Of a stretch of DNA of 64,000 nt, positions 7,805-34,910 are shown piece by piece (position 1 is the stretch's first letter; each line of letters opens with the position of its first letter). The translations under genes and the position numbers were made by a program. The DNA comes from Pseudomonas chlororaphis subsp. aurantiaca. GTDB lineage: Bacteria > Pseudomonadota > Gammaproteobacteria > Pseudomonadales > Pseudomonadaceae. The stretch lies in NCBI RefSeq assembly GCF_013466605.1, contig NZ_CP059162.1:6138001-6202000 (forward strand). The letters run 5' to 3'. Below the pieces are notes generated by a model that was given only the letters and a program-made list of their open reading frames with translations, did no database searches and was not told the DNA's origin.

Positions 7805-12121
<4,317 letters not shown>

Positions 12122-21564: not shown

Positions 21565-21615
21565 TTCTGTCGCTCCGTCCGCGCCAGAGGTGGCAACGTC
21601 AGGCTTAACGACCTG

Positions 21616-21642
21616 CCCCCCCCCCCCCCCCAAAAAAAAAAA
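21616..21642. repeat. Homopolymer C16-A11 tract before a terminator
   Basis: By count, 16 consecutive C are followed by 11 consecutive A, directly abutting the terminator stem. It lies between genes, so slippage would not shift a frame. The exact lengths may be uncertain in the assembly. Confidence 0.9.
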
Positions 21643-21676
21643 GCCGCGCAGCGTTCAATCGCTGCGCGGCCTTTTT
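21643..21676. terminator. Strong intrinsic terminator at the left edge of the biosynthetic island
   Basis: GCCGCGCAGCG and CGCTGCGCGGC are perfect 11-bp arms with a TTCAAT loop, followed by CTTTTT; the A11 tract on the other side makes it usable from both strands. It isolates the hydrolase gene from the operon to the right. Confidence 0.93.
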
Positions 21677-21985
21677 GGGTTGTCTTCCAGCAAGCTCGTT
21701 CTCTGGCGATTATCACCGTTGACGTAACAATCCCCCGGGACTGGATTGCCTTTCACCTCAGGCACGGAAAATGCCTGCCAACATGCAATAAAAAAAGACG
21801 GCAAAAACACCCCTCGGCACAGGTGATCCGACGAAATACCTGTGGCTGGTGACACGCGAAAAAAAGTGCCTCATGTGTCGCCAAGTTAATGATTACAGTC
21901 ATCAAATTTGCCTACCGTCGAAACGGTGGAATCATCTTAATATCAATTCAGATCATTCCTACCCGACCTATGGATCCAATTCTTC

Positions 21986-22018
21986 TTGACACCCTAAATA
22001 GTCGAAGCTATTCATAAT
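21986..22018 (+). promoter_or_regulatory. Candidate promoter of the biosynthetic operon
   Basis: TTGACA at 21986-21991 is a perfect -35. TATTCA lies 17 bp downstream and overlaps CATAAT at 22013-22018, so the -10 is either weak at ideal spacing or better at long spacing. The dyad AATAGTCGAAGCTATT sits between the two elements, where a repressor would act. Confidence 0.5.
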
Positions 22019-22077
22019 CCCTACATCATGGAAATGATAGATAACTATTCTTTACACTAATAAGAAAGGATTCACCG

Positions 22078-22095
22078 ATGAGCGTTAACCCCTGA
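22078..22095 (+). CDS. Mini-ORF MSVNP (5 codons), candidate leader or micro-precursor peptide
   Basis: ATG AGC GTT AAC CCC TGA encodes MSVNP. AAAGGA lies seven bases before the ATG, the best ribosome site in the leader region. The ThiF-type enzyme of the cluster resembles MccB, whose substrate is a seven-residue peptide encoded first in the microcin C operon, so a gene this short could be functional. It may equally be a regulatory leader or chance. The C-terminal residue is Pro, not the Asn used by MccB. Confidence 0.3.
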   Translation: MSVNP

Positions 22096-22126
22096 ACTGC
22101 CTTATCTACTTTCGCTGCCCCTGAGA

Positions 22127-22151
22127 GGATTATTTATTCATTAAATAATCC
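22127..22151. repeat. AT-rich inverted repeat in the operon leader
   Basis: GGATTATTTA and TAAATAATCC are perfect 10-bp arms around TTCAT. There is no T-run after it, so it is more likely an operator or an mRNA hairpin than a terminator. It lies between the MSVNP mini-ORF and the first enzyme gene. Confidence 0.6.
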
Positions 22152-22155
22152 CGCC

Positions 22156-22236
22156 ATGGTCATGACGCGATTCTTTGGCAATATATCCAACAGCGATAAA
22201 CAGCACGACTCATGCCCTTCTGAAATCGGCATATAG
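22156..22236 (+). CDS. Small ORF, 26 codons, doubtful
   Basis: The frame encodes MVMTRFFGNISNSDKQHDSC followed by PSEIGI. It begins five bases after the inverted repeat and ends 64 bases before the first enzyme start. No good ribosome site is visible. It is listed because an RRE-like domain in the cluster makes short upstream ORFs possible precursor peptides. Confidence 0.2.
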   Translation: MVMTRFFGNISNSDKQHDSCPSEIGI

Positions 22237-22300
22237 TGTTTTATCCGGTGTGGTGGGTTTACTCATCCCTGAAACTATTACTTCTACAAGGAGTTCGATA

Positions 22301-23494
22301 GTGAAATTGGAAAGTGCCGTACCCCGTGAACTCACAACCGATATTATTGAGGACCTTACTGGCGGATCCATATGGGATACATGGCTGGATAGCGACTCGC
22401 TGAATCAGTTGGTCAACCATCCGCTGCTCTTGGCCATGCAAGAGGGGAGTATCTCTTTAAAAGGCATGCGCTTTTTCTTGGTACAACATCATCACTACTC
22501 TCGCAACTTCACCCGTTTTCTCTGCGCCATAATCAACCGGCTCGAGAGCCTGGATGACATCAAGCACCTGATGAAAAACATGCAGGAGGAAATGGGAATC
22601 GACGACGTAGGCAAGGTGACTCATGCCGAGCTGTTCCAAAGAACCCTGCGCGCCACCGGAACCCATGCCATGGCCGAAAAGGCCTTGCCGCAGACCCTCG
22701 ACTTCACTCAGGCCGTCATGGAGTTCTGTCGCCGCGAAAACGCCATCGAGGGCCTCGCGGCCCTGTGCATGGGAGCCGAGGCGATCGTGCCGCTGATCTA
22801 TAGGCCCGTCCTGCAGGCCCTGGAGCGCCTGAATGTCAGCGAAGAAGGCCTGGAGTTCTTCCGTGTGCACATCGAAGAGGATGAGGACCACGCGATCACG
22901 ATGCTGGGCATCCTCGAACAGCTAGCCCAGTGCTCACCTGGAGCAAGACTCCTGGCCAAGGACGTCGGACGTCGGATCATTCTCAAGCGCTGCGCAATGT
23001 TCGATGCCATCTGGCAGAAGGTCGGCCAGGAGCCCGCGCAAGCTCATGATGAGCAGCGCGCGCAGCCGGACAAGCTCACCTGGTTGAATGCCGTGACCAC
23101 TGTTCCTATCCAGCTGCCGCGCCGCTTGTTGCATGTCGCCGTCGAGGGCGAGCGTGGTGCGCCACGGACCACGCCAACATCGAGCCAGAAAAGCAGTGTC
23201 GTGGATTTACCGGTGCAAACAATGCGCGTGAGCCTGGAACAACTCGCTCCCAACACACAAACCCGCCTGCACAGACATAACTACGAAACCGTCATTTATG
23301 TTCTAAGCGGAAGTGGCGCAACTTACATTGAAGAGAAAGTTCTTCACTGGGAAGCCGGCGACGCTATCTATGTTCCCGCCTGGGCCGGGCACTACCATGT
23401 CAGCGACCACCAGCAAACAGTCTCATATATTGCCTGCGAGAACTCTCCGCTATTGGCCAGCCAGGGGAAGATTGTCATTCGCGAAGAACTCTGA
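22301..23494 (+). CDS. Heme-oxygenase-like diiron oxidase (HDO) fused to a cupin
   Basis: The GTG start was chosen because AAGGAG lies seven bases before it; an ATG 42 codons earlier has no ribosome site. The protein is 397 residues. Residues ~20-245 are an all-helical HDO/TenA-PqqC-type domain with metal ligands E97, H108 (KVTHAEL), E160 (MGAEAIVP), H190, D194 and H197 (RVHIEEDEDH). The E-to-H gap of 30, then H-x3-D-x2-H, matches SznF. The first-helix ligand is unclear (QHHHY, 63-67). Residues ~300-397 are a cupin with LHRHNYE and VPAWAGHYH. HDOs such as SznF and RohS N-oxygenate amines; BesC and UndA cleave C-C bonds. N-oxygenation or N-N bond formation is the favoured inference. First gene of the operon. 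Confidence 0.8.
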   Translation: MKLESAVPRELTTDIIEDLTGGSIWDTWLDSDSLNQLVNHPLLLAMQEGSISLKGMRFFLVQHHHYSRNFTRFLCAIINRLESLDDIKHLMKNMQEEMGIDDVGKVTHAELFQRTLRATGTHAMAEKALPQTLDFTQAVMEFCRRENAIEGLAALCMGAEAIVPLIYRPVLQALERLNVSEEGLEFFRVHIEEDEDHAITMLGILEQLAQCSPGARLLAKDVGRRIILKRCAMFDAIWQKVGQEPAQAHDEQRAQPDKLTWLNAVTTVPIQLPRRLLHVAVEGERGAPRTTPTSSQKSSVVDLPVQTMRVSLEQLAPNTQTRLHRHNYETVIYVLSGSGATYIEEKVLHWEAGDAIYVPAWAGHYHVSDHQQTVSYIACENSPLLASQGKIVIREEL

Positions 23495-23582
23495 AACCGG
23501 CATCTGTATGCCGTAGCTCATCCCCTATTCAGTCTCACCATCTGGATTTAATTGCAATTAATTCCATTGGAAGGATATTGAC

Positions 23583-24881
23583 ATGAATAACTTTATTACT
23601 GAAGCGGTATCACTGATCAGTGAAGACCCTGCCGATACATTTTTCAATCACGAATCCGCGGTCAGAAGTTACTGTCGAAAGTTTCCCGCCATTTTCGCCA
23701 TCGCGCGCAATTCGATATTGACCGATATCAATGGCACCTCATACATCGACTTTCTGTCCGGGGCGGGCTCATTGAACTATGGACATAACAACCCAATGAT
23801 CAAGGAGGCATTACTGGAGTACTTGCGAAGCGACGGTATTACCCATTCCCTGGACTTGCACACCAGCGCCAAGAAGACCTTCATCGAGGAATTCAACCGG
23901 ATCATCCTAGGCCCCAGAGCACTGAACTACCGCCTGCAGTTCACCGGCCCGACCGGCACCAATGCTGTCGAAGCAGCGATGAAACTCGCCCGTAAAGTCA
24001 CCGGCAGAACCAACATAGTCGCCTTCAGCAATGCATTTCACGGCATGTCCCTGGGAGCCCTCGCTGCGTCGGCCCGAAGCGCCAAGCGTGCCGCGGCCGG
24101 TGTTTCGTTGCCGGACATCACACGGATGCCCTACGAAGGATTTCTCGGCCAGCAGGTGGACACCCTGAGCGTGCTGGAACACATGTTGACCATGCCCGGA
24201 TCGGGGATCGACCTGCCGGCCGCGTTCATCGTCGAACCGGTGCAAGCCGAAGGAGGCGTAAACGTTGCCAGCCCCCAATGGCTGCGAGGTCTCGCCCAAC
24301 TGGCCAGCCGCCACGGCATTCTGCTGATCGTCGATGACATTCAGGCCGGATGCGGAAGAACCGGGACTTTCTTTAGCTTCGAGAGGGCGGGTATCCAGCC
24401 CGACCTCGTCTGCCTGGCCAAGTCCATTTCCGGCTATGGCTTGCCCATGTCCCTGGTATTGATCAAGCCCGAGCTGGACCTTTGGCAGCCTGGAGAACAC
24501 AACGGTACCTTCCGCGGCAACAACCTGGCGTTCATCGCCGCCGCCCAGGCCCTGCGCTACTGGCAGGACTGCGACTTCATGGACGCCCTGAGCCAGCGTT
24601 CGAAACGGATCGCCGACACCATTGCACACTGGCAAGAGAGCTGGCCCCAACTGATCAAAGCCGTCCGCGGACTGGGAATGATCTGGGGAATCGAGCTGCC
24701 CGATGCGCTCACCACCCAGCAGGTCAGTGCCCAGGCCTATGCCGGCGGCCTGATCGTCGAAACCTGCGGCGCGCAGGACAACATCATCAAACTGCTCCCT
24801 CCGCTCACCATCGACCCACAGTCCCTCGACAAAGGGCTCGCCCAGCTGGGCCGCGCCCTGAGTAGCGCTGCAAAAAAATGA
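23583..24881 (+). CDS. Diaminobutyrate-2-oxoglutarate aminotransferase (EctB-like, class III)
   Basis: The 432-residue PLP enzyme has the EctB pattern: ESAVRSYCRKFPAIF near the N-terminus, DFLSGAGSLNYGHNNP, the phosphate loop GPTGTNAVEAAMKLARK (122-138), Asp251 in IVDDIQAGCGRTG and PLP lysine 280 in LAKSISGYGLPMSL. It makes L-2,4-diaminobutyrate from aspartate semialdehyde and glutamate. GGAAGG sits nine bases before the ATG. No EctA or EctC neighbour is present, so ectoine is not the product; the diamine presumably feeds the ligases of this operon. Confidence 0.88.
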   Translation: MNNFITEAVSLISEDPADTFFNHESAVRSYCRKFPAIFAIARNSILTDINGTSYIDFLSGAGSLNYGHNNPMIKEALLEYLRSDGITHSLDLHTSAKKTFIEEFNRIILGPRALNYRLQFTGPTGTNAVEAAMKLARKVTGRTNIVAFSNAFHGMSLGALAASARSAKRAAAGVSLPDITRMPYEGFLGQQVDTLSVLEHMLTMPGSGIDLPAAFIVEPVQAEGGVNVASPQWLRGLAQLASRHGILLIVDDIQAGCGRTGTFFSFERAGIQPDLVCLAKSISGYGLPMSLVLIKPELDLWQPGEHNGTFRGNNLAFIAAAQALRYWQDCDFMDALSQRSKRIADTIAHWQESWPQLIKAVRGLGMIWGIELPDALTTQQVSAQAYAGGLIVETCGAQDNIIKLLPPLTIDPQSLDKGLAQLGRALSSAAKK

Positions 24882-24905
24882 CCGTCCAAGCCCGAGGAAA
24901 TCGAT

Positions 24906-26318
24906 ATGAACAATAACGCCTTAGCCTGCACGCCCAACACCAGTCTTTTCGAGGCGGATGATCGCCTCATCGAGCAATTCCTTGCCCACCTGACACCGGA
25001 TGCGCATAAACGACTGATCGCGGCGCAAAAACGTTTTTGCGATTCGCTGTCCAGCGAAGGGCTGAATTTTGAAGGTAAAAGCTACCCCGTCTCCATCCGT
25101 CCCCTGATCCTGTCGAACGAGACGGTCGCGCAATTGCAGACCCTCGGCGAGGGCTTCGCCCGGGTGTTCGATCACGCCGCGAGAATCTACGTCGAGAACG
25201 AACAAGTACGCACGCTGTTTCCTGCCTACAAGAACAGCGAACACCTGACCTTCAACCTGCCGGGGCATTCACCGCTGGTACGTATTTTCAGACTCGACGG
25301 GCTATTCGACAGCGAGGGCGTCTATCGGATTCTGGAGACCAATACCGACTGCCCCGGCGGTGTGATCCAGAACGGACTGGCCGGCCGCCTCTGGGCCGAG
25401 ATCGACAACCCCCTGCTGACGGGCATCGACCACAGCGTCGATTTCCAACCGTTCGTGAGCGATCCGGATCTGTTCCTCAAGGAGCTCCTGAGCGCCCACT
25501 TTCAGCGCACGGGACAACCGGCCCGGCGAGCCGCCATCGTGACGTTCAAAGGGCGCTTCAAAAACGAAGTGGCCCAGATGGTTGCCGGGTTGAACCGCCT
25601 CGGCGTGCCCACCGAGGAAATCGATGCGGCCGACCTCAAGCGGCGCGACGGTCACCTCGTCGACCCCCAAGGCCGCGTCATCGACATGGCCTACAACAAA
25701 CTCGACCTGCGCGATCTTATCGACGAACCACTGGTCAGTGAGTATCTCGATGCGGCGTCGAACGCAGAGGTGACGTTCCTCAATCCGTTGATCAGCCAGT
25801 GGCCCCTTGCGGACAAGGCCATCATGGCCCTGTTGAGCGATCCCAAGATGTTGGCGCTGTTGCCCGAGGAGGATCGAGAGCTGTGCCGCACGCATATTCC
25901 CTGGACCCGTCTGCTGGCTGCCGGCCAGAGCAGCAATCCCCAGGGCCAGCCGATCGACCTGATCAGCTATGTCAGGCGGCATCGCCCACATCTGGTGTTG
26001 AAGCCCTCAAACGCGACCCGTGGTGAAGGTTTGCTGGTAGGGCCTTTCGCGACACAGGAGCAATGGGAGCAAGGGATTTGCAGTGCACTGGAGGGGCCCC
26101 ACAGTTTCGTGGTTCAGCAGTACATCCAGGGCCGGACGCTTTCTGCCGTTCATCCGGACCTCGGCGTGACCGAGTCGATGTGGTCAGGGGTGGATACCTA
26201 CGTATACGGCGGACGCTTCGCGGGTTTCCAGGCACGCGCCAGTTTCGACCCGGTCATGAATGTAGGCCGCAAAGGCATCCTGCTGCCCGTCATTACCCTC
26301 AAGGAGCTCGCTCGATGA
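24906..26318 (+). CDS. ATP-grasp ligase with pre-ATP-grasp domain (first of three)
   Basis: The 470-residue protein ends in an ATP-grasp-like half: Lys366 in LVLKPSNATRGEGLLVGP, hinge FVVQQYIQGRTL (401-412), and ARASFDPVMNVGRKG (443-457). The N-terminal half contains RLDGLFDS and RILETNTDCPGG (141-152), as in circularly permuted or glutathionylspermidine-synthase-like ATP-grasp proteins. Such enzymes activate a carboxylate as acyl phosphate and join it to an amine. No membrane segments. It overlaps the E1-like gene by four bases (ATGA). Substrates are not deducible; diaminobutyrate or an amino acid is plausible. Exact subfamily uncertain. Confidence 0.75.
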   Translation: MNNNALACTPNTSLFEADDRLIEQFLAHLTPDAHKRLIAAQKRFCDSLSSEGLNFEGKSYPVSIRPLILSNETVAQLQTLGEGFARVFDHAARIYVENEQVRTLFPAYKNSEHLTFNLPGHSPLVRIFRLDGLFDSEGVYRILETNTDCPGGVIQNGLAGRLWAEIDNPLLTGIDHSVDFQPFVSDPDLFLKELLSAHFQRTGQPARRAAIVTFKGRFKNEVAQMVAGLNRLGVPTEEIDAADLKRRDGHLVDPQGRVIDMAYNKLDLRDLIDEPLVSEYLDAASNAEVTFLNPLISQWPLADKAIMALLSDPKMLALLPEEDRELCRTHIPWTRLLAAGQSSNPQGQPIDLISYVRRHRPHLVLKPSNATRGEGLLVGPFATQEQWEQGICSALEGPHSFVVQQYIQGRTLSAVHPDLGVTESMWSGVDTYVYGGRFAGFQARASFDPVMNVGRKGILLPVITLKELAR

Positions 26319-27415
26319 ACCTGCCACAACTGCAAGCGACCGTAGTGGCCGTCCCTATTCATGCCCATCGCGTGGCCATTCATCGAGGAACCCGGCAGGG
26401 TGACGCGAGCCTGATCCTCGACGATCCGAATGGCTGGAAGTACATCGCCCTTCACTTGATGAACGGCCAGAACGACCTGTCCTGGATTGCCCAACAACTG
26501 GATACCCAGGGCCACCCGGCCCAGTACGATGAGCTCTTGGCCCTGGTCGAGGAACTGCGGGCGCAGAATCTGCTCCAGGACCGTTCGTTCTTCGAACCCC
26601 AGCACCTGCGGCCCGACCAGACCGATCGCTACTCTCGCAATCTCAATGGCTTTGCTGCATTGGCCCGGGACGGCCGGACGCCGGCCGAGCTACAGACCCG
26701 CCTGCTCGAGGGTCATGTTCTGATGCTAGGCTGCGGAGGGTTAGGCAGTTGCACGGCGACTGCCCTGACAATGGCCGGCTGCGGGACCATCACCCTGGTG
26801 GATTTCGACGAAATCGAATTGGGGAACCTCAACCGGCAACTGTTCACGGTCCAGGATATCGGCCTGAAAAAAGTCGATGGGCTCAAGATCCGACTGAACG
26901 CCATCAACCCGGACGTCAGGGTAAATACCGTCTTCGAGCGCCTGACCGGTACCGAGGCCGTCACTCGGCTGATCGACGAGTTCAAGCCCGACATTATCGT
27001 CGCCGCAATCGATCGCCCGGTGATCGCCGCTGATCGCTGGATCAGCGACGCCTGCTTTGCCAGAGGCGTACCGGCGGTCTTCAACAGCGTCTCGGCCGGC
27101 ATGGGCATGCTCTGGACCAAATTTCCCGGGCAGTCAGGCTGTTTTCGCTGTGACGAAAAATGGTCCCAGGAACACAACCCCGATCACCATGCCACCCGTC
27201 AGTATCGCGAACAGCATGACCTGATTCCGGCGACCTCGGCCTTCAGCCATTGCGCCATGACCGTGGGCGGCATGATGTCGGCGGACATCGTGCGCCATCT
27301 GGTCGGATGGCCCATGAGCTCGGCGGGAAAACTGGTCACCATCGATTTCGCGACCCTGCAAACGACAATCATCGACAAACCGCAACATCCCGCCTGCACG
27401 GCCTGCAGCGCCTGA
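26315..27415 (+). CDS. ThiF/MccB-like E1 adenylating enzyme with PqqD/RRE-like N-terminus
   Basis: The start is the ATG overlapping the ATP-grasp stop, giving 366 residues, close to MccB length. Residues ~15-95 resemble a PqqD/RRE winged helix (GDASLILDDPNGWKYIALHL, then NGQNDLSWIAQQL and ELLALVEELRAQNLL). Residues from 125 form the E1 domain: LMLGCGGLGS (137-145), the Asp-rich strand LVDFDEIELGNLNRQ (161-175) with Arg174, and the zinc pairs CFRC (276-279) and CTAC (361-364). It adenylates a C-terminal carboxylate, of a peptide in MccB and of a carrier protein in ThiF. No carrier protein gene is nearby, so a small peptide or amino-acid conjugate is the likely client. Confidence 0.82.
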   Translation: MNLPQLQATVVAVPIHAHRVAIHRGTRQGDASLILDDPNGWKYIALHLMNGQNDLSWIAQQLDTQGHPAQYDELLALVEELRAQNLLQDRSFFEPQHLRPDQTDRYSRNLNGFAALARDGRTPAELQTRLLEGHVLMLGCGGLGSCTATALTMAGCGTITLVDFDEIELGNLNRQLFTVQDIGLKKVDGLKIRLNAINPDVRVNTVFERLTGTEAVTRLIDEFKPDIIVAAIDRPVIAADRWISDACFARGVPAVFNSVSAGMGMLWTKFPGQSGCFRCDEKWSQEHNPDHHATRQYREQHDLIPATSAFSHCAMTVGGMMSADIVRHLVGWPMSSAGKLVTIDFATLQTTIIDKPQHPACTACSA

Positions 27416-27425
27416 GGAATCCCCG

Positions 27426-28481
27426 ATGAACATCGAACACAACAGGTCTTCGCCCGTCGCGGTCGACGACCCCGCCGTCTGGACCGCGGCCACGCTCAAG
27501 TCCAAGGCTGATGTCCTGCTGAACCTGGGTGAGCCCGAGCTGCAATGCATCGAGCAACTGTTGGCCAATAGCGCCCACAAGCCGATGCATGACCTGACTC
27601 GGGAGGACTTCGCAGCCCCCGCCATTCAGGAACTGCTGGGCAAATTGCACAAGGCGCTTCAGGACGGTCCCGGAGTCGCGGTGCTGCAGGGCATCGACAT
27701 TACTCGCTTCACCGGCGAGGCCCTTGAACGTCTGTTCTGGGGGCTGGCCCTGCACCTGGGCCGCCCCGTGGTACAGAGCACTCGTGGCGATCGTATCGGC
27801 CATGTCCGCCACGAGCCGTCCAATCCCAAGAATCGCGGCTACCAGTCCAACAGAGAGCTGGGGTTCCACTCGGACGCCTTCGAGATCATCGGACTGCTGT
27901 GCCTCAGCGGGGCCGCCAGCGGCGGAACCACGGAAATTGTCAGTGGCCTGGCGGTACACAATCAGTTGGTGACCGAGAATCCGCAGTTGCTGCCGGCGCT
28001 GTATGAAGGTTATCCCTATGCCACAGCGGAACGCTCCCAGTCCCACACTCCGGTAACGGACTACCGGATTCCAGTGTTTTCCCGGGTCGGCAGTACGCTG
28101 AGTTCGATGTGCGTGGGCAATTACATGCGGGCCGCCGCCCAGACGCTAGGGCAGGCATTTCCAGAAAGGCTGGACGCCGCCCTGAAAGCCTTTTACGACA
28201 TCTGCAATCGAAAATCCTTTCAGCTCACGTTCTTGCTGGAGCCAGGGGAAATCCTGTTCCTGAACAACTACACCACTCTGCATTCCCGTACCGAATTCCA
28301 GGACTCGGACACCCACAAGCGGCACTTGCTGCGGTTGTGGCTGGACGTTCCGAACGGACGACCTGTCGTTCCCGTACTCAAAGCCCGGGGTACCGACTAC
28401 GAGCTTCTGTACCTTGAAACGGACCAGGACAAGCAGGGTAACGAGCGCCACATGGCCAGTCGGACCGGGACAACGCGATGA
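27426..28481 (+). CDS. Fe(II)/2-oxoglutarate-dependent dioxygenase, TauD/TfdA family
   Basis: The 351-residue enzyme has the facial triad His148-x-Asp150 (LGFHSDAFEII) and His286 (TTLHSRTEF), with 2-oxoglutarate-binding Arg303 in HLLRLWLDVP. An N-terminal helical extension of ~75 residues precedes the double-stranded beta helix, as in clavaminate-synthase-like members. LHLGRPVVQSTRGDRIGHVR and the GGTTEIVSGLAVHN strand are typical. It would hydroxylate, desaturate or epoxidise an amino-acid-like substrate. Its stop codon overlaps the start of a 15-codon mini-ORF (ATGA). Spacing of ten bases from the E1-like gene supports one transcript. Confidence 0.88.
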   Translation: MNIEHNRSSPVAVDDPAVWTAATLKSKADVLLNLGEPELQCIEQLLANSAHKPMHDLTREDFAAPAIQELLGKLHKALQDGPGVAVLQGIDITRFTGEALERLFWGLALHLGRPVVQSTRGDRIGHVRHEPSNPKNRGYQSNRELGFHSDAFEIIGLLCLSGAASGGTTEIVSGLAVHNQLVTENPQLLPALYEGYPYATAERSQSHTPVTDYRIPVFSRVGSTLSSMCVGNYMRAAAQTLGQAFPERLDAALKAFYDICNRKSFQLTFLLEPGEILFLNNYTTLHSRTEFQDSDTHKRHLLRLWLDVPNGRPVVPVLKARGTDYELLYLETDQDKQGNERHMASRTGTTR

Positions 28482-28525
28482 ACCGGCGCCCCCTTTATCT
28501 CTTGCACGTTGGACTTTCGAAATGA
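28478..28525 (+). CDS. Mini-ORF, 15 codons, coupled on both sides
   Basis: The frame encodes MNRRPLYLLHVGLSK. Its ATG overlaps the dioxygenase stop (ATGA) and its TGA overlaps the acetyltransferase start (ATGA), so it bridges the two genes exactly. GGGA lies about eight bases before the ATG, while the acetyltransferase has only a weak site of its own. It may be a coupling ORF that delivers ribosomes, or a small precursor peptide for the RRE-bearing E1 enzyme. No Cys, Thr or acidic residues are present. Confidence 0.35.
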   Translation: MNRRPLYLLHVGLSK

Positions 28526-28986
28526 CAGAAGTGAAAAACCCGGATCGCCAGCACGACTTTGTCGTCACGGTTCATGAGAGTGCCCCGGCAGCCGGTCGTG
28601 GCCGGATCAACGAGTTGCTGGATCAATACAATGTGTCGCAAACCGGAATCTGCGACAACGAGCCCCTGGATCTCACAGTCACGGACCCTCTCAGCGGCGA
28701 GGTGGTAGGCGGTCTGGTCGGCAGGACATCCCTGGGGGTGTTCTTCATCAACTACTTCTATCTGCCCGACACCCTGCGCGGCAAAGGCTACGGCTCTCAG
28801 ATCCTGCGCCAGGCCGAACGCCTGGCCGCCCTTCGCGGATGCCGGACCGCCCTGCTGTTCACCATGGAAATCCAGGCACCGGCGTTCTACGAAAAAAACG
28901 GCTATGAGGTATTCGGCCGCGTCGAGTGCAGTCCCAGGGGCAATGCACGGCTGTTCATGCGCAAACCGATCCAGCCACTGGACTGA
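28522..28986 (+). CDS. GNAT-family N-acetyltransferase
   Basis: The 154-residue start at MTEVKNPDRQHDF was chosen since the longer in-frame stretch lies inside the dioxygenase gene. Motif A is LRGKGYGSQILRQAERLAA (85-103) with acetyl-CoA P-loop RGKGYG. Motif B is the AFYEKNGYEVFGRV region (121-134). The INYFYLPDTLRG strand precedes the loop as usual. It probably N-acylates a free amine of the pathway intermediate, either as a biosynthetic step or for self-protection. It is not an EctA-type diaminobutyrate acetyltransferase by overall sequence. Translation is likely coupled to the mini-ORF. Confidence 0.85.
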   Translation: MTEVKNPDRQHDFVVTVHESAPAAGRGRINELLDQYNVSQTGICDNEPLDLTVTDPLSGEVVGGLVGRTSLGVFFINYFYLPDTLRGKGYGSQILRQAERLAALRGCRTALLFTMEIQAPAFYEKNGYEVFGRVECSPRGNARLFMRKPIQPLD

Positions 28987-29013
28987 AACACCGGCCAATG
29001 ACAGGGAGATGAC

Positions 29014-30213
29014 ATGGCTATCTTGTGTTTAGGCAGAAGCATCAAAATCGATTTCGCCCAATGGCTGGCCGAGCGGGACCAGGACCTGTACCTGATCAGC
29101 TCGACCCCCTTCCCATCCCAGCACAAGTACCGTCTGGTCAAGCGCCTGGAGGATCTGGACGCCGATTCGCAGGCCGAAATCACCGCGCTGGACTTCGCGG
29201 CAGGCACCCGGTTTTCCCGAATCCTGCCACACTCGGAATTCGACTTGATCCGTGCCGCCCGCTTGCGCGAACACCTCGGCGTACCGGGCCAGAGCCTGGA
29301 AAGCGCCATCGCCTACCGCGATAAAGTGGTCATGAAGGAACATATGAACAGGGCCGATATCCCCGTCGCCCACTTCAAGCGCCTGCGATCGCCGCTGGAT
29401 GTCATTGAATTCATCAAGCGTCATGGCTACCCCAGCATCATCAAGCCGGTCGATGGTTGCAGCTCAAAAGACATCCAGGTCATCAAAAGCCGCTCGGACC
29501 TGGCTGCGTTGTTCCACAAGCCAACGCTCGACGGCTACATGATCGAGTCATTCGTCGAAGGCCGGATGTTCCATGTCAATGGGGTTTTGACGGCAGAGGG
29601 CAGGACGTTTTTTGCGCCGTGCGCCTACATCAACGGCTCATTGGATTTCCAGCGGGCCGGCACGTTTGGCAGTCGCACCCTGGAGCCCGACACCCCGATC
29701 GCACGACGCCTGGTCGAGTTCACCCGCAAGGTGATTGCCGCGCTACCCGAAACATCCCCCCTGGGCTTCCATGCGGAAATCTTCCAGACCCCGGACGATC
29801 GGCTGGTGCTGTGCGAGATCGCCGCACGAACGGCAGGTTCCCTGACCGGCGAACTGATCGAACTGAGTTATGGCATCAACATTCACAAGGCCTGGATTAG
29901 GGCCTGCGCCGGCATCGAAGACGAGTTGCCCATCGGACGCTCGCCTACCTGTGTCGCGGCATCGATCCGCGTTCCAGTACGTGACGACCGGCTTGTGAAG
30001 ATCCCCGCATCCCTACCCTTCGACTGGGTCAGCACCCTATGTATCACCGGCATCGAAGGATTGGCCTACCAGCCTGCCCAAACCTACACCGACGATGTGC
30101 TTAGCGCGATTCTGGTCGGCGACAGCGATGAGCAACTGCTGGAGCGCATCGACACCTTCCACGACTGGCTGAACGGTTCGGTCCTGTGGGAGTCCGCGAA
30201 ACTGACGAGTTGA
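29014..30213 (+). CDS. ATP-grasp ligase (second of three)
   Basis: The 399-residue protein has the classical three-part ATP-grasp layout. The N-domain (1-95) is followed by SAIAYRDKVVMKEHMNRADI with Lys104, ATP-binding Lys144 in SIIKPVDGCSSKDIQVI, hinge YMIESFVEGRMFHVNG (175-190), and the metal site FHAEIFQ to LVLCEIAARTAGS (252-276, Glu268). Similar enzymes (BacD-, carnosine-synthase- and RizA-like) make dipeptides from unprotected amino acids. AGGGAG lies eight bases before the ATG. The C-terminal ~100 residues are unlike the other two ATP-grasp proteins of the operon. A peptide bond to diaminobutyrate is one possible reaction. Confidence 0.82.
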   Translation: MAILCLGRSIKIDFAQWLAERDQDLYLISSTPFPSQHKYRLVKRLEDLDADSQAEITALDFAAGTRFSRILPHSEFDLIRAARLREHLGVPGQSLESAIAYRDKVVMKEHMNRADIPVAHFKRLRSPLDVIEFIKRHGYPSIIKPVDGCSSKDIQVIKSRSDLAALFHKPTLDGYMIESFVEGRMFHVNGVLTAEGRTFFAPCAYINGSLDFQRAGTFGSRTLEPDTPIARRLVEFTRKVIAALPETSPLGFHAEIFQTPDDRLVLCEIAARTAGSLTGELIELSYGINIHKAWIRACAGIEDELPIGRSPTCVAASIRVPVRDDRLVKIPASLPFDWVSTLCITGIEGLAYQPAQTYTDDVLSAILVGDSDEQLLERIDTFHDWLNGSVLWESAKLTS

Positions 30214-30243
30214 TTGTCCTCTTCCATACACAGGGAGCGTTAT

Positions 30244-31494
30244 ATGAAAGTGCTAATCGTAGGTTGCAGCTCGGGTGCACATGCACTGGCATGGAAGCTG
30301 ATCCAGTCCGATCAGGTCGAGAAAGTGTATGTAGCCCCCGGCAGCCCGGGTACGGCGGACGAACCGAAAGTCGAGAATCTGGAGGTGGAGACCACCGACA
30401 TACCTGGCCTGGCGAACGCCGCGGCCCAGTACGACGTGGACTACACCTTGATTACCCCGACCCAGGCACTGGCCGCGGGTATCGTGGACTATTTTCAAGA
30501 GCGTGGCCTGAAGGTGCTGGCGCCTACCCGAGAAGCATCAAGACTTGAGTGGTCAAAGGAGTATTCCAAACGGTTCATGCAGCGACACAAGATCCCTACG
30601 CCTGGTTTCAAAGTGTTCGCAGACGCCCCCAGCGCCCGACAATATGCCCACACGCGCTTCCTGCCCCTCGTCCTGAAGGTCGATGGCATGGCCAACGGTG
30701 GCCTGGGCGTGGTGATCGCTCATGAATGGCAGGCCGTCGACGAGACGATCGAACACATGTTCACCACCTATGGAGGGCCAATCATCGTTGAAGACTTCCT
30801 GGTGGGCGAGGAAGTCAGTTTTACCGTCCTGTTCGATGGCACCCACTACGTCCCCATGGTCGAAAGCCGCGACTACAAAAGACTGCACGATAACGACAAG
30901 GGTCCCAATACCGGGGGAATGGGGGCGTATTCGCCGGTCATTTCCCAGGCGCTGTCCCAGAAGATCATCGACCGCCTCGTCGAGCCGACGATCAGGGCCA
31001 TCAAGGAAGATGCAATCGACTACCTGGGCTTCCTGTACTTCGGCGTGATGATCGACCCGGAGCAGGAAGTCCATCTGCTGGAAATCAACTGCCGCCTCGG
31101 CAACCCGGAATTGTTCACGATGCTCGAACGCATGGACAGTGAACTGGGCCCGTTGCTCGAACTGGCATTGGCAAGACGACTGCACCAGGCAGAGGTCCGC
31201 TGGAACGACAAATGCGCGGTAGCACTGCAAATCAGCTCCGCCGGGTATCCAGGCGTAAAACGCACCGGCGACGTCATCTCGCTTCCTTCGGGAGAGCAGG
31301 AGGCAAAGATCTTTCATGCCGCCGTATCAAGTGCGCAAGGCCAACTGGTGACCAAGGGTGGACGAATCATCTCGCTGAGCGCCTCGGCAGATACGCTTGA
31401 AGCGGCCCGAGAACGTATTTACGCGGTGGCACGCAAGATTCACTTCGATGGCATGCATTACCGAAAAGATATCGCGACACTCGGCGCACGCTGA
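30244..31494 (+). CDS. PurD-like (GAR synthetase) ATP-grasp paralogue (third of three)
   Basis: Starting at MKVLIVGCSSGAHALAWKL (ribosome site GGGAG), it is 416 residues, the normal PurD length. It keeps PurD features: VAPGSPGTADEP, PLVLKVDGMANGGLGVVIA (141-159), IVEDFLVGEEVSFTVLFDG, GPNTGGMGAYSPV (220-232), and LEINCRLGNPE. The N-domain loop, which in true PurD reads G-x-G-G-R-E-H and contacts phosphoribosylamine, reads GCSSGAHA here, and the GPE motif is replaced by TPT. It therefore looks repurposed: glycine-type ligation chemistry with a different amine partner. The primary-metabolism purD should be elsewhere in the genome. Confidence 0.85.
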   Translation: MKVLIVGCSSGAHALAWKLIQSDQVEKVYVAPGSPGTADEPKVENLEVETTDIPGLANAAAQYDVDYTLITPTQALAAGIVDYFQERGLKVLAPTREASRLEWSKEYSKRFMQRHKIPTPGFKVFADAPSARQYAHTRFLPLVLKVDGMANGGLGVVIAHEWQAVDETIEHMFTTYGGPIIVEDFLVGEEVSFTVLFDGTHYVPMVESRDYKRLHDNDKGPNTGGMGAYSPVISQALSQKIIDRLVEPTIRAIKEDAIDYLGFLYFGVMIDPEQEVHLLEINCRLGNPELFTMLERMDSELGPLLELALARRLHQAEVRWNDKCAVALQISSAGYPGVKRTGDVISLPSGEQEAKIFHAAVSSAQGQLVTKGGRIISLSASADTLEAARERIYAVARKIHFDGMHYRKDIATLGAR

Positions 31495-31543
31495 TCCTTC
31501 CTGGCGCCAGTCCCTGGCGCCGGTAACCCAACGACATCGAGCC

Positions 31544-32938
31544 ATGATGAATACCGACAAGAACCAGCGTCTCGTGCTACTGGCGGCCAATATCAGCTAC
31601 ATATTGGTCCTTCTCGACTCTTCTATTGTCAATGTCGCCCTGCCAGCGATCAGAAACGGACTGGCCATCGGCACCGATACGCTGCAATGGATGGTTAACG
31701 TCTACCTGGTAATTTTTGCCAGCCTGCTGCTGTCAGGGGGCGCCCTGTGCGACCGCCTCAGCGCAAAAACCGTCTATATGGCCGGCCTGCTGCTGTTTGT
31801 CGCCGCCTCACTACTATGCGGTCTGAGCGCCAGCGCGGCGCAGTTGCTGGCTGGACGGACCTGCCAGGGGATTGGTGCGGCGTTGCTGGTGCCCAGCTCG
31901 CTGGCGCTGATCACGCATACCTATACAGAGAGTTCCGCACGGGCAAAAGCCATTGCCAGCTGGGCCAGTTGGGGGGGGATTGCGCTGGTAATGGGACCGT
32001 TGATAGGCGGACTCCTGACTCAATACCTGTCATGGCGCTCGATATTTCTGGTCAACATTCCCGTCGGCCTGCTGGGTGTCTGGCTGACCTCTCGAATCGA
32101 GCCCCCGATAGCGCCCTATAAGGAAAAACACCTCGATCTGAAAGGACAGTTCACTGTCACGGTGATGCTGCTGAGCCTCATCGCAATACTGATCGAATAT
32201 CCCCGGTTAAACACGGACTCCATTTATCTGCTGCTGGGCGTACTGACCTGTGCGGCGTCGCTGATCGCCTTTGTCCTGATCGAGGTCCATGGCTCTCATC
32301 CAATGCTGCCCCTGACGCTGTTCAGGAATACCAATTTCAGCACCATCGCTTACATTTTTTTTGCCGGAGCCTTTTCGTTCTTCGGCACACTGTTCATCCT
32401 CACGTTCTACTTTCAGGACTACCTGCACTACAGCGCCATCGAAACCGGGCTTGCCCTGCTGCCCCTGTCCCTCTGTGTGATCATCGGCAACAAGGTATCC
32501 GGACGCTGGGTGGACCGATTCCCGCCGCGCCAGTTGATGATCGCTGGAGCCTTCATCCGTCTGGTCGGATTTTGTGGATTACTGTTGCCTCAATACTCCA
32601 CGCATTACCCCTGGTTGCTCATCCCCCTGATATTGATCGGATTCGGAGGAGGACTTGGGGCGCCCATGTCCACCTCAGTGTTCATGCAAAGCACGCCGAA
32701 GATATACACCGGCATCGCTGCGGGCTTTTCCAGAGCGACTGGACAAATAGGTTCCGCATTTGGAGTCGCGGTGTTCGGGCACTTCGTCAACGACACCGAG
32801 TTTTTTCTGAGGCATATGAAACTGGCCGTTCTGACGATCGTCATCGCGACGCTGTCGATCCTGGTCATGTCGATCGTGTTTGTCAGCGATGAGCGCAACG
32901 ATTATGCCGAGCTACCTGACCCGGAGAAGGCGGAGTGA
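31544..32938 (+). CDS. MFS exporter, DHA2 (EmrB/QacA) family
   Basis: The 464-residue start at MMNTDKNQRLVLLAAN was chosen since the upstream in-frame codons lie inside the PurD-like gene. It has about 14 hydrophobic helices. It shows the DHA2 signatures LLDSSIVNVALPAI (helix 1), GGALCDRLSAKT (motif A) and GRTCQGIGAALLVPSSLALI, plus motif C GGIALVMGPLIGGLLTQYLSWR. The family exports drugs and metabolites by proton antiport. In this operon it is the likely exporter and self-resistance factor for the product. Its stop overlaps the amidase start (GTGA), so synthesis is coupled. Confidence 0.9.
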   Translation: MMNTDKNQRLVLLAANISYILVLLDSSIVNVALPAIRNGLAIGTDTLQWMVNVYLVIFASLLLSGGALCDRLSAKTVYMAGLLLFVAASLLCGLSASAAQLLAGRTCQGIGAALLVPSSLALITHTYTESSARAKAIASWASWGGIALVMGPLIGGLLTQYLSWRSIFLVNIPVGLLGVWLTSRIEPPIAPYKEKHLDLKGQFTVTVMLLSLIAILIEYPRLNTDSIYLLLGVLTCAASLIAFVLIEVHGSHPMLPLTLFRNTNFSTIAYIFFAGAFSFFGTLFILTFYFQDYLHYSAIETGLALLPLSLCVIIGNKVSGRWVDRFPPRQLMIAGAFIRLVGFCGLLLPQYSTHYPWLLIPLILIGFGGGLGAPMSTSVFMQSTPKIYTGIAAGFSRATGQIGSAFGVAVFGHFVNDTEFFLRHMKLAVLTIVIATLSILVMSIVFVSDERNDYAELPDPEKAE

Positions 32939-34326
32939 CGACCCCGATTACCCAACTGACCGCCGTTGAACTCATGACGCTGATCCAGGCCCGGGATCTG
33001 TCGCCGGTCGAAGTTACCGAGGCGTTCCTGGAACGTATCCTCGACACTCGAACCTCATCGAACGCCTTTGTCGATATCTATGAATGCCAGGCCCGCGCAG
33101 CGGCACACAGGGCGTGCAAGGCCATAAGCAGTGGACAGGCATCAAGTTCGCTGCACGGCATGCCCATTGCCCTGAAAGACTTGTTCCATGTGAAAGGCGA
33201 GCTTACGGCGGCGGGCTCCTTGTGCTGGAAGCACCATCGAGCACAAGCGACTTCGACGGTTGTAGAGCGGCTGTTGAGCAAAGGCATGGTCATCCTGGGC
33301 AAGACCCATACCGTCGAATTTGGCCTTGGCGCCTTTGGCGTCAACGAGCATTTCGCGACTCCGCGCAATCCGTGGAGCCGCCAGACAGAGTTGGCACCCG
33401 GCGGATCCAGCAGTGGATCGGCGGTAGCCGTAGCCACCGGGCTGACCCCCTGGGCCTTGGGGACCGATACTGGCGGTTCAGTGCGTATTCCCGCCTCCTG
33501 GTGCGGCGTTGTCGGCCTCAAGCCCAGCCACGGCCAGATCGAAATGAACGATGTCGTTCCTCTGAGCCAGACGCTCGACTCGGTGGGCGTCCTTGCCAGA
33601 TCTGTCGAAGATGCATCGCTGCTCTATGCTCATCTGCTCGACGAGCCCACACGCCAATGCCTTGCAGACAATGCCGAACGCTTCGGACAGGTGGCGCTCA
33701 GCCGATATCGCGTGGCCACTTTGCCGTTGCACGAGCGCTCATGGGTCTCTGCCGACGTCCTGGCCTGCTACGACACGGCCATTGCAGTGCTGCGAGCCAC
33801 CGGCATCCGACCCCGGGCCGGCATATTCCCCATGCCCCTGGAGGAGTGCCTGAAGAAAAATTCCCTGATCACTTTCTATGAGGCCTTGGCCAACTACAGA
33901 ACGCTTCATGCCGACGCTAAAAGTGACCTAGGCGAATCGGTTCGGGCGCGACTGTCACGTGGCGCCGGGATCTCCCAGGCCGAGTACCTTAATGCCCTGC
34001 AGGAAATGGCCACGCTGCGTACCCTGTTCGAGCGCATCTATGATCAGGTCGAAGCCATAGTCCTACCCACGACACAAATGCCCGCCTGCGCCGTGGACGA
34101 CATCAAGCACCTTGCGCCCCCCAATCACTTCACTCGCTTCGTCAACTTTCTGGGCCTGTGCGCAATTGCCGTCCCTGCGGGTTTTACAGCAGACAACCGT
34201 CCTTGCTCGCTGCAATTCGTCTGCAAGCGAAACCAGGAACACATCGCCCTCGACCTTGCTCGCGTCTATGAGGCCCAGACGCCCTGGCACTCAATACACC
34301 CGCCAGCGTTCCTGCTTCCCGGCTGA
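32935..34326 (+). CDS. Amidase signature (AS) family hydrolase
   Basis: The GTG start overlaps the MFS stop codon and gives 463 residues. The Ser-cisSer-Lys triad is intact: Lys81 in IALKDLFHVKG, Ser158 in PGGSSSGSAVA and nucleophile Ser182 in TDTGGSVRIP, within the standard signature ending VVGLKPSHG. No signal peptide is seen, so it acts in the cytoplasm. AS enzymes hydrolyse or transfer amides. Here it could unmask the product (removing an acetyl or glutamyl group), detoxify it, or finish the biosynthesis. It is the last gene of the operon; a strong terminator follows 14 bases later. Confidence 0.9.
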   Translation: MTTPITQLTAVELMTLIQARDLSPVEVTEAFLERILDTRTSSNAFVDIYECQARAAAHRACKAISSGQASSSLHGMPIALKDLFHVKGELTAAGSLCWKHHRAQATSTVVERLLSKGMVILGKTHTVEFGLGAFGVNEHFATPRNPWSRQTELAPGGSSSGSAVAVATGLTPWALGTDTGGSVRIPASWCGVVGLKPSHGQIEMNDVVPLSQTLDSVGVLARSVEDASLLYAHLLDEPTRQCLADNAERFGQVALSRYRVATLPLHERSWVSADVLACYDTAIAVLRATGIRPRAGIFPMPLEECLKKNSLITFYEALANYRTLHADAKSDLGESVRARLSRGAGISQAEYLNALQEMATLRTLFERIYDQVEAIVLPTTQMPACAVDDIKHLAPPNHFTRFVNFLGLCAIAVPAGFTADNRPCSLQFVCKRNQEHIALDLARVYEAQTPWHSIHPPAFLLPG

Positions 34327-34340
34327 AATAGGGCAACAAA

Positions 34341-34372
34341 AAAGCCTTTGGTGCATGCACACCAAAGGCTTT
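34341..34372. terminator. Bidirectional terminator at the right edge of the biosynthetic operon
   Basis: AAAGCCTTTGGTG and CACCAAAGGCTTT are perfect 13-bp arms around CATGCA, with an A-run on the left and TTTATT on the right. It serves both the amidase transcript and the convergent ssb transcript. Confidence 0.93.
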
Positions 34373-34397
34373 ATTCGAACCGCGATCAAGGCTGGCC

Positions 34398-34910
34398 TTA
34401 GAACGGGATATCGTCATCAAAGCTGTCGTCGAAGTTCTGCGCCGGCTGCGGCGAGGACTGCTGAGGCGCTGGACGCGATTCGCGTTGTGGCGCCTGCGAA
34501 GGCTGCGGACGCGACTGCTGCGGACGTGGCGCGGAGTTGCCCATGCCCTGGCCCTGGTCGCCCTGTGGACGGCCGCCCAGCAGCTGCATGGTGCCCTGCA
34601 TGTCGACGATGATTTCAGTGGTGTAACGCTTGATGCCGTCTTTTTCCCACTCGCGGGTCTGCAGCTTGCCTTCGATGTAGACCTGCGAACCTTTGCGCAG
34701 GTATTCGCCGGCGATTTCCGCGACCTTGCCGAACATCGACACACGGTGCCACTCGGTCTTCTCGACCTTCTGACCGGTTTGCTTGTCGGTCCATTGTTCG
34801 CTGGTGGCCAGACTCAGGTTGGTCACGGCATTACCGTTAGGCAGGTAGCGAACTTCAGGATCCTGGCCGCAAGTGCCGACCAATATGACTTTGTTAACCC
34901 CACGGGCCAT
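34398..34910 (-). CDS. ssb: Single-stranded DNA-binding protein
   Basis: The 170-residue protein has an OB-fold N-terminal domain ([20 protein letters not shown] to about residue 112, including [18 protein letters not shown]). A Gln/Pro/Arg-rich linker follows, and then the acidic partner-binding tip FDDDIPF. It coats single-stranded DNA in replication and recruits repair proteins through the tip. It lies nine bases after the MFS gene on the same strand and shares its transcript. uvrA is divergent from that unit, the usual Pseudomonas arrangement. Confidence 0.97.

What the first reader, a model, noticed from the sequence alone, without database searches (positions are those of the whole stretch)
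22301..34326. Ten-gene biosynthetic operon without NRPS or PKS, apparently undescribed
Seen: an HDO-cupin, EctB-like aminotransferase, ATP-grasp, RRE-like/ThiF E1, TauD dioxygenase, GNAT, second ATP-grasp, PurD-like ATP-grasp, DHA2 exporter and amidase lie on one strand, mostly with overlaps or short gaps, between two strong terminators. Known: each family occurs in small-molecule biosynthesis. Inference: the product is a small peptide-like compound built by ATP-grasp ligation around diaminobutyrate, oxidised on N and C, acylated, exported, and processed by an amidase. I know no characterised cluster with this set.
Basis: partly seen in the sequence, partly recalled or inferred. Interest (0 to 1): 0.92.

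Follow-up and report, generated by a model that had tools for sequence, protein, structure and literature searches.

The report
ATP-grasp peptide cluster, product unknown
Ten neighbouring genes in a Pseudomonas genome, found in the same order in Photorhabdus and on Pantoea plasmids, look like a mobile recipe for a small peptide-like compound with an oxidised diaminobutyrate unit; the product is unknown.

Summary
All ten genes at 22301-34326 are co-directional and in the named families. Their order is kept in P. fluorescens HKI0874, three Photorhabdus genomes and two P. agglomerans plasmids, so the adjacency is not chance. The block is an insertion: one relative has an isochorismatase gene about 0.12 kb from ssb where the window has 12.8 kb. 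dN/dS against HKI0874 is 0.07-0.20 for the eight genes where it could be measured.

Gene fusions in relatives (HDO-EctB, EctB-ATP-grasp, HDO-EctB-ATP-grasp) suggest that the diiron oxidase, the diaminobutyrate aminotransferase and the first ATP-grasp act in succession. EctB+HDO also recur in a second Pseudomonas operon. Best reading: diaminobutyrate is made, oxidised (perhaps at the gamma nitrogen), joined into a short peptide by up to three ATP-grasp ligases, tailored by an FrbJ-like oxygenase and a PaaA-like E1, and exported; GNAT and amidase may mask and unmask it. Every reaction is inferred.

No matching described cluster turned up, but MIBiG could not be searched. HDO+ATP-grasp clusters are a recognised kind, so this is a new variant with unproven product.

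The parts
21643..21670 (.). terminator-like hairpin at the left edge, listed on both strands
   Evidence: 11 pairs on +, 17 on -
21986..22014 (+). probable promoter TTGACA-17-TATTCA; P. fluorescens HKI0874 has TTGACA-17-TATTCC at the matching place
   Evidence: read by eye; not in the scan
22301..23494 (+). gene 1: heme-oxygenase-like diiron oxidase (HDO) with C-terminal cupin, 397 aa; E97, H108, E160, H190, D194, H197 invariant in 67 aligned proteins
23583..24881 (+). gene 2: EctB, diaminobutyrate--2-oxoglutarate transaminase
   Evidence: TIGR02407 above cut-off
24906..26318 (+). gene 3: circularly permuted ATP-grasp ligase (glutathionylspermidine-synthase-like)
26315..27415 (+). gene 4: E1-like adenylating enzyme closest to PaaA of pantocin A; GCGGLG, NLNRQ, CFRC and CTAC motifs present
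27426..28481 (+). gene 5: TauD-family Fe/2-oxoglutarate oxygenase closest to FrbJ; H148, D150, H286 invariant in 51 aligned proteins
28522..28986 (+). gene 6: GNAT acetyltransferase (mechanical ORF starts TTG 28414)
29014..30213 (+). gene 7: ATP-grasp ligase, closest to an L-amino acid ligase
   Evidence: PDB 4wd3, 3e-13
30244..31494 (+). gene 8: PurD paralogue with altered GGREH and RFGDPETQ motifs; the housekeeping PurD is elsewhere
31544..32938 (+). gene 9: MFS exporter, EmrB/DHA2-like (below the EmrB cut-off; mechanical ORF starts TTG 31397)
32935..34326 (+). gene 10: amidase-signature amidase with IALKD, GGSSSG and TGGSVR motifs
34341..34372 (-). terminator-like hairpin at the right edge, before ssb; listed on the - strand only
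   Evidence: 14 pairs

Best explanation
A mobile, NRPS-free operon for a short modified peptide. EctB makes L-2,4-diaminobutyrate (DABA) from aspartate semialdehyde. The HDO oxidises it, most likely at the gamma amine (hydroxylamine, oxime or nitro level). The circularly permuted ATP-grasp, in one relative fused to EctB and in another to HDO-EctB, couples this unit to an amino acid; the L-amino acid ligase and the PurD-like ligase (probably with glycine or another small amino acid) extend it. The TauD-family enzyme oxidises carbon near the N-oxidised group, by analogy with FrbJ. The PaaA-like E1 adenylates a carboxylate to close a ring, without a ribosomal precursor. GNAT masks the compound inside the cell, the MFS pump exports it and the amidase unmasks or trims it. 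Shown: gene families, conserved order, fusions, conserved motifs, an insertion at a site empty in a relative, purifying selection. Inferred: every reaction, the order of steps and the product.
For: Family assignments. Ten-gene order in seven places of three genera. Fusions HDO-EctB (Pantoea L004, Photorhabdus L009), HDO-EctB-gene 3 of 1159 aa (Photorhabdus L007) and EctB-gene 3 of 922 aa between stops (L006). EctB+HDO recur in 3 of 249 genus genomes beside ThiF, GNAT and MFS genes too distant for BLASTP to match the window's. HDO ligand candidates invariant in 67 proteins. TauD closest to FrbJ, 7e-57; E1 closest to PaaA, 8e-29; gene 7 closest to L-amino acid ligase 4wd3, 3e-13. The five cluster PurDs aligned lose motifs that the host's own PurD keeps. 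dN/dS 0.07-0.20 for eight genes, with synonymous change of 1.1-2.1 per site, so rough. No small ORF conserved upstream that could be a precursor.
Against: By sequence the HDO is nearer to CADD (3e-12) and BesC (6e-11) than to the amine N-oxygenase HrmI (0.011), in a profile without the distant row P0202. An earlier profile with that row gave stronger values (CADD-type 1e-41 to 1e-31, BesC 2e-17, HrmI 6e-6) and should not be relied on; a single-sequence search listed neither BesC nor HrmI at E up to 0.01. The cupin has no match in the Pantoea and Photorhabdus loci, while L004 and L007 have a CapA-family gene that the two Pseudomonas copies lack, so the products may differ. The Photorhabdus thracensis HDO (L009) lacks four residues in the metal motif. 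No dedicated reductase is in the operon. PurD-like specificity, GNAT target and amidase role are guesses. No structure could be predicted.
Confidence: 0.55

Rival explanations
1. A RiPP operon of the pantocin A / microcin C kind: the E1 modifies a short ribosomal peptide, and a tiny ORF upstream is the precursor.
For: E1 closest to PaaA, aligned from residue 31. Tiny ORFs with a ribosome-binding-site-like stretch lie at matching places in the two Pseudomonas copies (5 codons at 22079; 16 codons in L006).
Against: The tiny ORFs differ from each other and have no counterpart in the Photorhabdus or Pantoea upstream regions (gaps inside those operons were not searched). A dedicated EctB and three ATP-grasps are not needed to modify a ribosomal peptide.
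Confidence: 0.08
2. An ectoine-like compatible-solute pathway with EctB, a GNAT, a cupin and an Fe/2OG hydroxylase in the places of EctA, EctC and EctD.
For: EctB equivalog; GNAT, cupin and Fe/2OG genes in the same operon.
Against: GNAT and cupin match no EctA or EctC model in NCBIfam at E up to 0.001; the cupin has no match in the Photorhabdus and Pantoea loci; HDO, E1, ATP-grasps, exporter and amidase have no place in ectoine synthesis (recalled).
Confidence: 0.03
3. A SznF-like N-nitroso pathway: the HDO hydroxylates nitrogens and the cupin rearranges them.
For: HDO + cupin architecture of gene 1; PMC13108848 (passages) says that SznF, unlike other characterised HDOs, has a C-terminal cupin.
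Against: No chain named SznF among the PDB hits of the HDO profiles at E up to 5. The cupin has no match in the enterobacterial loci or in the L034 sister operon. The six invariant ligand candidates fit 3His/3carboxylate, but E96 is also conserved, so a fourth carboxylate is not excluded.
Confidence: 0.1
4. The HDO makes a C-C or C-H change (desaturation, alkyne, ring) on a DABA residue, perhaps in a peptide as MboA does on Leu-Ala-Arg, and no N-oxidation occurs.
For: MboA acts on an ATP-grasp tripeptide (PMC13185094, passages); the HDO profile matches BesC, a C-C-cleaving HDO, far better than HrmI (6e-11 against 0.011).
Against: No MboB-like reductase in the operon. The HDO is fused to EctB in relatives, which suggests action on free DABA, where BesC-type cleavage would make no obvious product (inference).
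Confidence: 0.26

Closest known systems
Mangotoxin cluster (mboABCDEF)
   Same: HDO plus two ATP-grasp amino acid ligases, no NRPS, tripeptide product (PMC13185094, passages)
   Different: No MboB-type reductase here; here EctB, E1, TauD, PurD-like, GNAT and amidase; no MboA chain among the PDB hits of the HDO profiles
Pantocin A cluster (paaPABC)
   Same: E1 closest to PaaA; an oxygenase and an MFS exporter in both (PaaB and PaaC recalled, not looked up)
   Different: No PaaP-like precursor found upstream; DABA and ATP-grasp genes added
Belactosin / hormaomycin nitrocyclopropyl module (BelK-BelL, HrmI-HrmJ)
   Same: HDO plus Fe/2OG enzyme; belactosin also uses ATP-grasp ligases (PMC10764440, passages)
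   Different: Lysine, not DABA, is the substrate there; HrmI matches the HDO profile only at E 0.011 and no BelL-type chain appears for the TauD profile
FR-900098 oxygenase FrbJ
   Same: Best PDB match of gene 5 and its relatives (7e-57)
   Different: No phosphonate gene among the ten families; FrbJ's pathway and substrate are recalled, not looked up
Ectoine operon
   Same: EctB above the equivalog cut-off
   Different: No EctA or EctC family match
Streptozotocin SznF
   Same: HDO + cupin in one protein
   Different: No SznF chain among PDB hits at E up to 5

Membership tests
NRPS-free ATP-grasp peptide cluster with HDO (the kind that includes mangotoxin) | an HDO next to at least one ATP-grasp amino acid ligase | tested here: met
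   genes 1, 3 and 7; order kept in seven places; ligase activity itself untested
Mangotoxin cluster proper | dedicated flavin/2Fe-2S reductase MboB beside the HDO | tested here: not met
   no such domain in the ten proteins
Mangotoxin cluster proper | Leu-Ala-Arg-derived product | not testable with these tools
   needs chemistry
Pantocin A cluster | PaaA-type E1 | tested here: met
   PaaA is the best PDB match, 7.8e-29, ahead of ThiF 6e-22 and MccB 2.5e-19
Pantocin A cluster | ribosomal precursor peptide PaaP | tested here: not met
   no small ORF conserved upstream among window, L006, L007-L009 and L004; gaps inside the window operon are at most 88 bases; gaps in the other operons not searched
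SznF family | HDO and cupin in one chain | tested here: met
   but no cupin match in the Pantoea and Photorhabdus loci
SznF family | sequence relation of the HDO to SznF | tested here: not met
   no SznF chain at E up to 5; that SznF is in this PDB copy was not verified
SznF family | 3His/4carboxylate metal site | tested here: inconclusive
   six invariant candidates are 3His/3carboxylate, but E96 is invariant in 22 of 22 rows of A5 too; no structure
BelK/HrmI - BelL/HrmJ nitrocyclopropane module | HDO related to HrmI | tested here: inconclusive
   HrmI at E 0.011, 5.7e-6 with a distant row in the profile; CADD and BesC rank above it both times
BelK/HrmI - BelL/HrmJ nitrocyclopropane module | Fe/2OG enzyme of the BelL/HrmJ family | tested here: not met
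   no BelL-type chain among 8 PDB hits at E up to 1e-3; FrbJ is best; that a BelL chain is in this PDB copy was not verified
Ectoine operon | EctB | tested here: met
   TIGR02407 610.2 bits, cut-off 552.2
Ectoine operon | EctA and EctC | tested here: not met
   no EctA or EctC model matched GNAT or cupin
PurD (phosphoribosylamine-glycine ligase) | overall family score | tested here: met
   TIGR00877 404.9 bits, cut-off 288
PurD (phosphoribosylamine-glycine ligase) | GGREH and RFGDPETQ motifs of the housekeeping enzyme | tested here: not met
   changed in 5 of 5 cluster PurDs aligned (window, L006, L007, L009, L004); kept in the host's own PurD at G000:C1:735418-736671

The most novel reading that the evidence does not exclude
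The operon makes the nitro analogue of the plant ethylene precursor ACC inside a peptide: EctB gives DABA, the HDO takes its gamma amine to a nitro group, the TauD enzyme closes a ring between the alpha and gamma carbons (1-amino-2-nitrocyclopropane-1-carboxylate), and the ATP-grasps, with PurD-like adding glycine, make the peptide. Ethylene-releasing nitrocyclopropane peptides were, as I recall, isolated in the 1980s from Enterobacter agglomerans, now Pantoea agglomerans, the species whose plasmids carry this cluster. No call confirmed that recollection: one search found no paper with both terms, and the 10 papers listed do not hold the word. It would then be the missing cluster of an old natural product and a bacterial route to disturb plant ethylene.
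Probability: 0.08. Interest if true: 0.85.

Novelty: new variant of a known kind. Interest (0 to 1): 0.55.

Why it matters
A horizontally moving, ten-gene, NRPS-free peptide pathway shared by Pseudomonas, Photorhabdus and Pantoea, whose product is unknown, joins three enzyme types not seen together in the clusters compared here: a DABA-linked diiron oxidase, a PaaA-like E1 with no precursor peptide found, and a repurposed PurD. The natural EctB-HDO and EctB-ATP-grasp fusions give ready constructs for assigning an HDO reaction, and the EctB+HDO module recurs in another operon. If the nitro-ACC reading were right it would link the operon to plant ethylene signalling.

Tried and rejected
Precursor peptide: upstream regions of six loci compared; nothing conserved. 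Known RNA in 21400-34500: none in Rfam at E up to 0.1. Identity with known Pantoea antibiotics: the survey PMC11350110 (passages) gives for pantocin B 13 ORFs, 17.3 kb, 35% GC, for PNP-3 8 genes, 8.5 kb, 49% GC, for PNP-2 6 genes, for dapdiamide 9 genes, and describes PNP-5 as holomycin-like; PNP-4 has 14 genes including an acyl carrier protein and a ketosynthase (PMC7744662, passages). The Pantoea copy here spans 12.4 kb at 38% GC from HDO-EctB to amidase, so none fits by these numbers, but gene lists of pantocin B and PNP-3 were in supplements I could not open; pantocin B in particular stays unexcluded. Other loci with gene 3 (L010-L022; 13 of the 17): no HDO, E1 or TauD match from the window in the DNA held, some of it short; among them L013 and L015 (L012 in part) have EctB with a WelO5-superfamily Fe/2OG enzyme, and L011, L014, L016 (also L024, L025) an L-amino acid ligase. 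That Fe/2OG enzyme has HDD, not HxG, so I dropped the idea that it is a halogenase. A first alignment with the host's PurD used the wrong strand and was redone. Paraburkholderia phymatum paper PMC8305402 (passages): not this cluster. DNA of the block has no near match in the plasmid and E. coli collections; gene 3 has none in the phage collection. A class-wide draw of 369 genomes found gene 3 in the host only, at E up to 1e-30.
Full report
WHAT IS THERE. The window lies in a 6.95 Mb one-contig genome (G000:C1:6138001-6202000) of the same genus as G055, whose contig of 357,995 bases is, by its length, that of P. fluorescens HKI0874. Ten genes at 22301-34326 run on the + strand with overlaps or gaps of at most 88 bases. 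Pfam and NCBIfam give: HDO + cupin, EctB, circularly permuted ATP-grasp, ThiF/E1, TauD, GNAT, ATP-grasp, PurD, MFS, amidase. Starts for GNAT, PurD-like and MFS are later than the mechanical ORFs. The edges carry the two longest hairpins of the terminator scan; the right one is listed on the - strand only, the side of ssb. A TTGACA-17-TATTC promoter with a leader of about 300 bases lies in front, and the HKI0874 copy has a similar arrangement (read by eye).

INSERTION. To the right lie ssb, a YajR-type MFS and, further on, a catalase gene (the ORFs between were not all identified), then rpoA, secY and ribosomal genes. To the left is an isochorismatase-family gene. In genome G010 (L051) the isochorismatase homologue (83% identity) ends about 0.12 kb from ssb; in the window 12.8 kb separate them. 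The isochorismatase was seen beside ssb in 1 of 24 non-own loci examined (L047-L070, flanks of at most 1.5 kb, one of them cut short by a contig end), so the site is variable; five loci from other genera (L071-L075) were left out. The HKI0874 loci (L005, L006) show none of the flanking genes tested, so the two Pseudomonas copies seem to sit at different places. GC is 0.589 against 0.657 for window 1-21600.

DISTRIBUTION. The E1 gene has a close match in 2 of 249 genus genomes, the host included; a third match, G191 at 31%, looks like a distant E1. Gene 3 has 96 protein relatives in a capped search; the nearest, at 95-97% identity for genes 1, 3 and 5, are from other Pseudomonas strains, so the window's copy is not unique. 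A scan of species genomes gave 17 loci. Of these, 4 carry the whole set in the same order: L006 (HKI0874; the same place as L005) and L007-L009 (Photorhabdus). Two same-size P. agglomerans plasmids carry it too. The other 13 loci (L010-L022), 12 of them rhizobial and one Amycolatopsis, show gene 3 without HDO, E1 or TauD in the DNA held. Protein hits that share a longest-contig length suggest further copies in Pendulispora, Burkholderia ubonensis and some metagenomes; this is inference, the contigs were not read.

FUSIONS. Stop-to-stop frames give HDO-EctB of 672 aa in Pantoea (L004) and 690 aa in L009, HDO-EctB-gene 3 of 1159 aa in L007, and EctB-gene 3 of 922 aa in L006 (L008 was not translated). 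Homologues of 666 aa with HDO and Aminotran_3 domains occur in Kosakonia and Pantoea stewartii. In the window the three are separate. HDO, EctB and gene 3 therefore most likely act on successive intermediates around DABA.

SISTER OPERON. Of 249 genus genomes 6 have an HDO match at E up to 1e-30: the host, G055, G031, and three (G056, G094, G195) with a different operon, hydrolase-ThiF-MFS-GNAT-EctB-HDO-cupin-LysR; G195 lacks the cupin. No ATP-grasp is among the L035 genes scanned. Its EctB is 55.5%, HDO 34% and cupin 47% identical to the window's; by BLASTP at E up to 0.01 its ThiF, GNAT and MFS find no match in the window set, although both ThiFs belong to the Pfam family. So EctB+HDO is a module used in two contexts. 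In G031 the HDO-cupin lies among chorismate-binding, AMP-ligase and flavin/2Fe-2S reductase genes, so the HDO-cupin family is not tied to DABA everywhere.

ENZYMES. HDO: E97, H108, E160, H190, D194, H197 are invariant in 67 proteins and in 22 HDO-only rows, where E96 is invariant as well; that these are the metal ligands is by analogy. L009, not in those alignments, lacks four residues there. The clean profile finds CADD (3e-12), 4-aminobenzoate synthases (3e-12, 1e-11), BesC (6e-11), HrmI (0.011) and UndA (0.029), no SznF; a first profile with a distant row gave inflated values. TauD: H148, D150, H286 invariant in 51 proteins; FrbJ (7e-57) and a 'predicted hydroxylase' 7n7v (2e-49) are the best structure matches. 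E1: PaaA is best; ATP-loop and two CxxC motifs present. Gene 7: L-amino acid ligase 4wd3, 3e-13. PurD-like: the chromosome has its own PurD, 42% identical to gene 8; the five cluster PurDs aligned lose the GGREH and RFGDPETQ motifs. Amidase: Lys, GGSS and GGS motifs present in the five copies examined. L004 and L007 have a CapA-family gene (PGA_cap for L007), related to the lasso-peptide epimerase MslH at 8e-19 and 1e-21, far below that model's cut-off (PDB hits of the L007 protein carry CapA-type names); L008 and L009 have a gap of the same size there. The cupin has no match in L004 and L007-L009. dN/dS against HKI0874: 0.07-0.20 for eight genes; synonymous sites saturated for genes 1 and 7 and high elsewhere.

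MECHANISM. See best explanation. The strongest inference is DABA supply followed by oxidation and ATP-grasp ligation. The weakest is the kind of oxidation. N-oxidation is favoured by the fusion to the enzyme that makes the amine, by an oxygenase nearest to FrbJ (which, as I recall, works on a hydroxamate), and by HrmI as a precedent for a terminal amine; it is opposed by the closer sequence match to CADD and BesC. A masked-precursor logic (GNAT on, amidase off) is an analogy recalled from bialaphos-type pathways, not tested.

KNOWN OR NEW. The literature searches on gene sets, chemistry and strains (one search was mostly off topic) gave listings, and I read passages of six papers; none of what I saw describes this gene set. 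PMC13185094 (passages) states that at least 25 unique clusters combine an HDO with an ATP-grasp ligase, so the kind is recognised. PMC11350110 (passages) lists 12 Pantoea antibiotic clusters, none fitting by size, GC and gene number as far as readable. MIBiG, antiSMASH and supplements were out of reach. I therefore call it a new variant of a known kind.

Noticed in passing
L035:3659-11331 (G094), L036:3873-11538 (G056), L034:3706-10873 (G195): A second DABA operon in other Pseudomonas: hydrolase, short ThiF lacking the CxxC pairs and N-terminal domain of the window's E1, MFS, GNAT, EctB, HDO, cupin, LysR; the cupin is missing in L034.
   Followed up: partly
L033:4250-12506 (G031): HDO-cupin beside anthranilate-synthase-like subunits, an AMP ligase, a thioesterase, a RidA-family protein, an MFS and a flavin/2Fe-2S reductase: a separate cluster I could not name.
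   Followed up: partly
L013:1093-3418; L015:7497-9612; L012 (partial): Mesorhizobium loci holding gene 3 pair EctB with an adjacent WelO5-superfamily Fe/2OG enzyme that has HDD rather than a halogenase HxG; other rhizobial loci pair gene 3 with an L-amino acid ligase, in S. fredii GR64 (L025) near nif genes.
   Followed up: partly
window 21565-34397: The insertion lies next to ssb; in P. aeruginosa the pyochelin genes lie beside ssb (recalled), so this may be a favoured site for biosynthetic islands.
   Followed up: partly
window 22079-22096 and the leader of L006: Tiny ORFs (5 and 16 codons) with a ribosome-binding-site-like stretch lie about 200 bases before gene 1 in both Pseudomonas copies; possible leader peptides, not seen in the other loci.
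   Followed up: partly
L009 HDO region, about 8025-8711: The Photorhabdus thracensis HDO lacks four residues within the conserved HIEEDEDH metal motif, so that copy may be inactive.
   Followed up: no
L004:6537-6974: The Pantoea plasmid has a second GNAT copy before the operon (40% to gene 6), perhaps a self-resistance gene.
   Followed up: no
   Followed up: no
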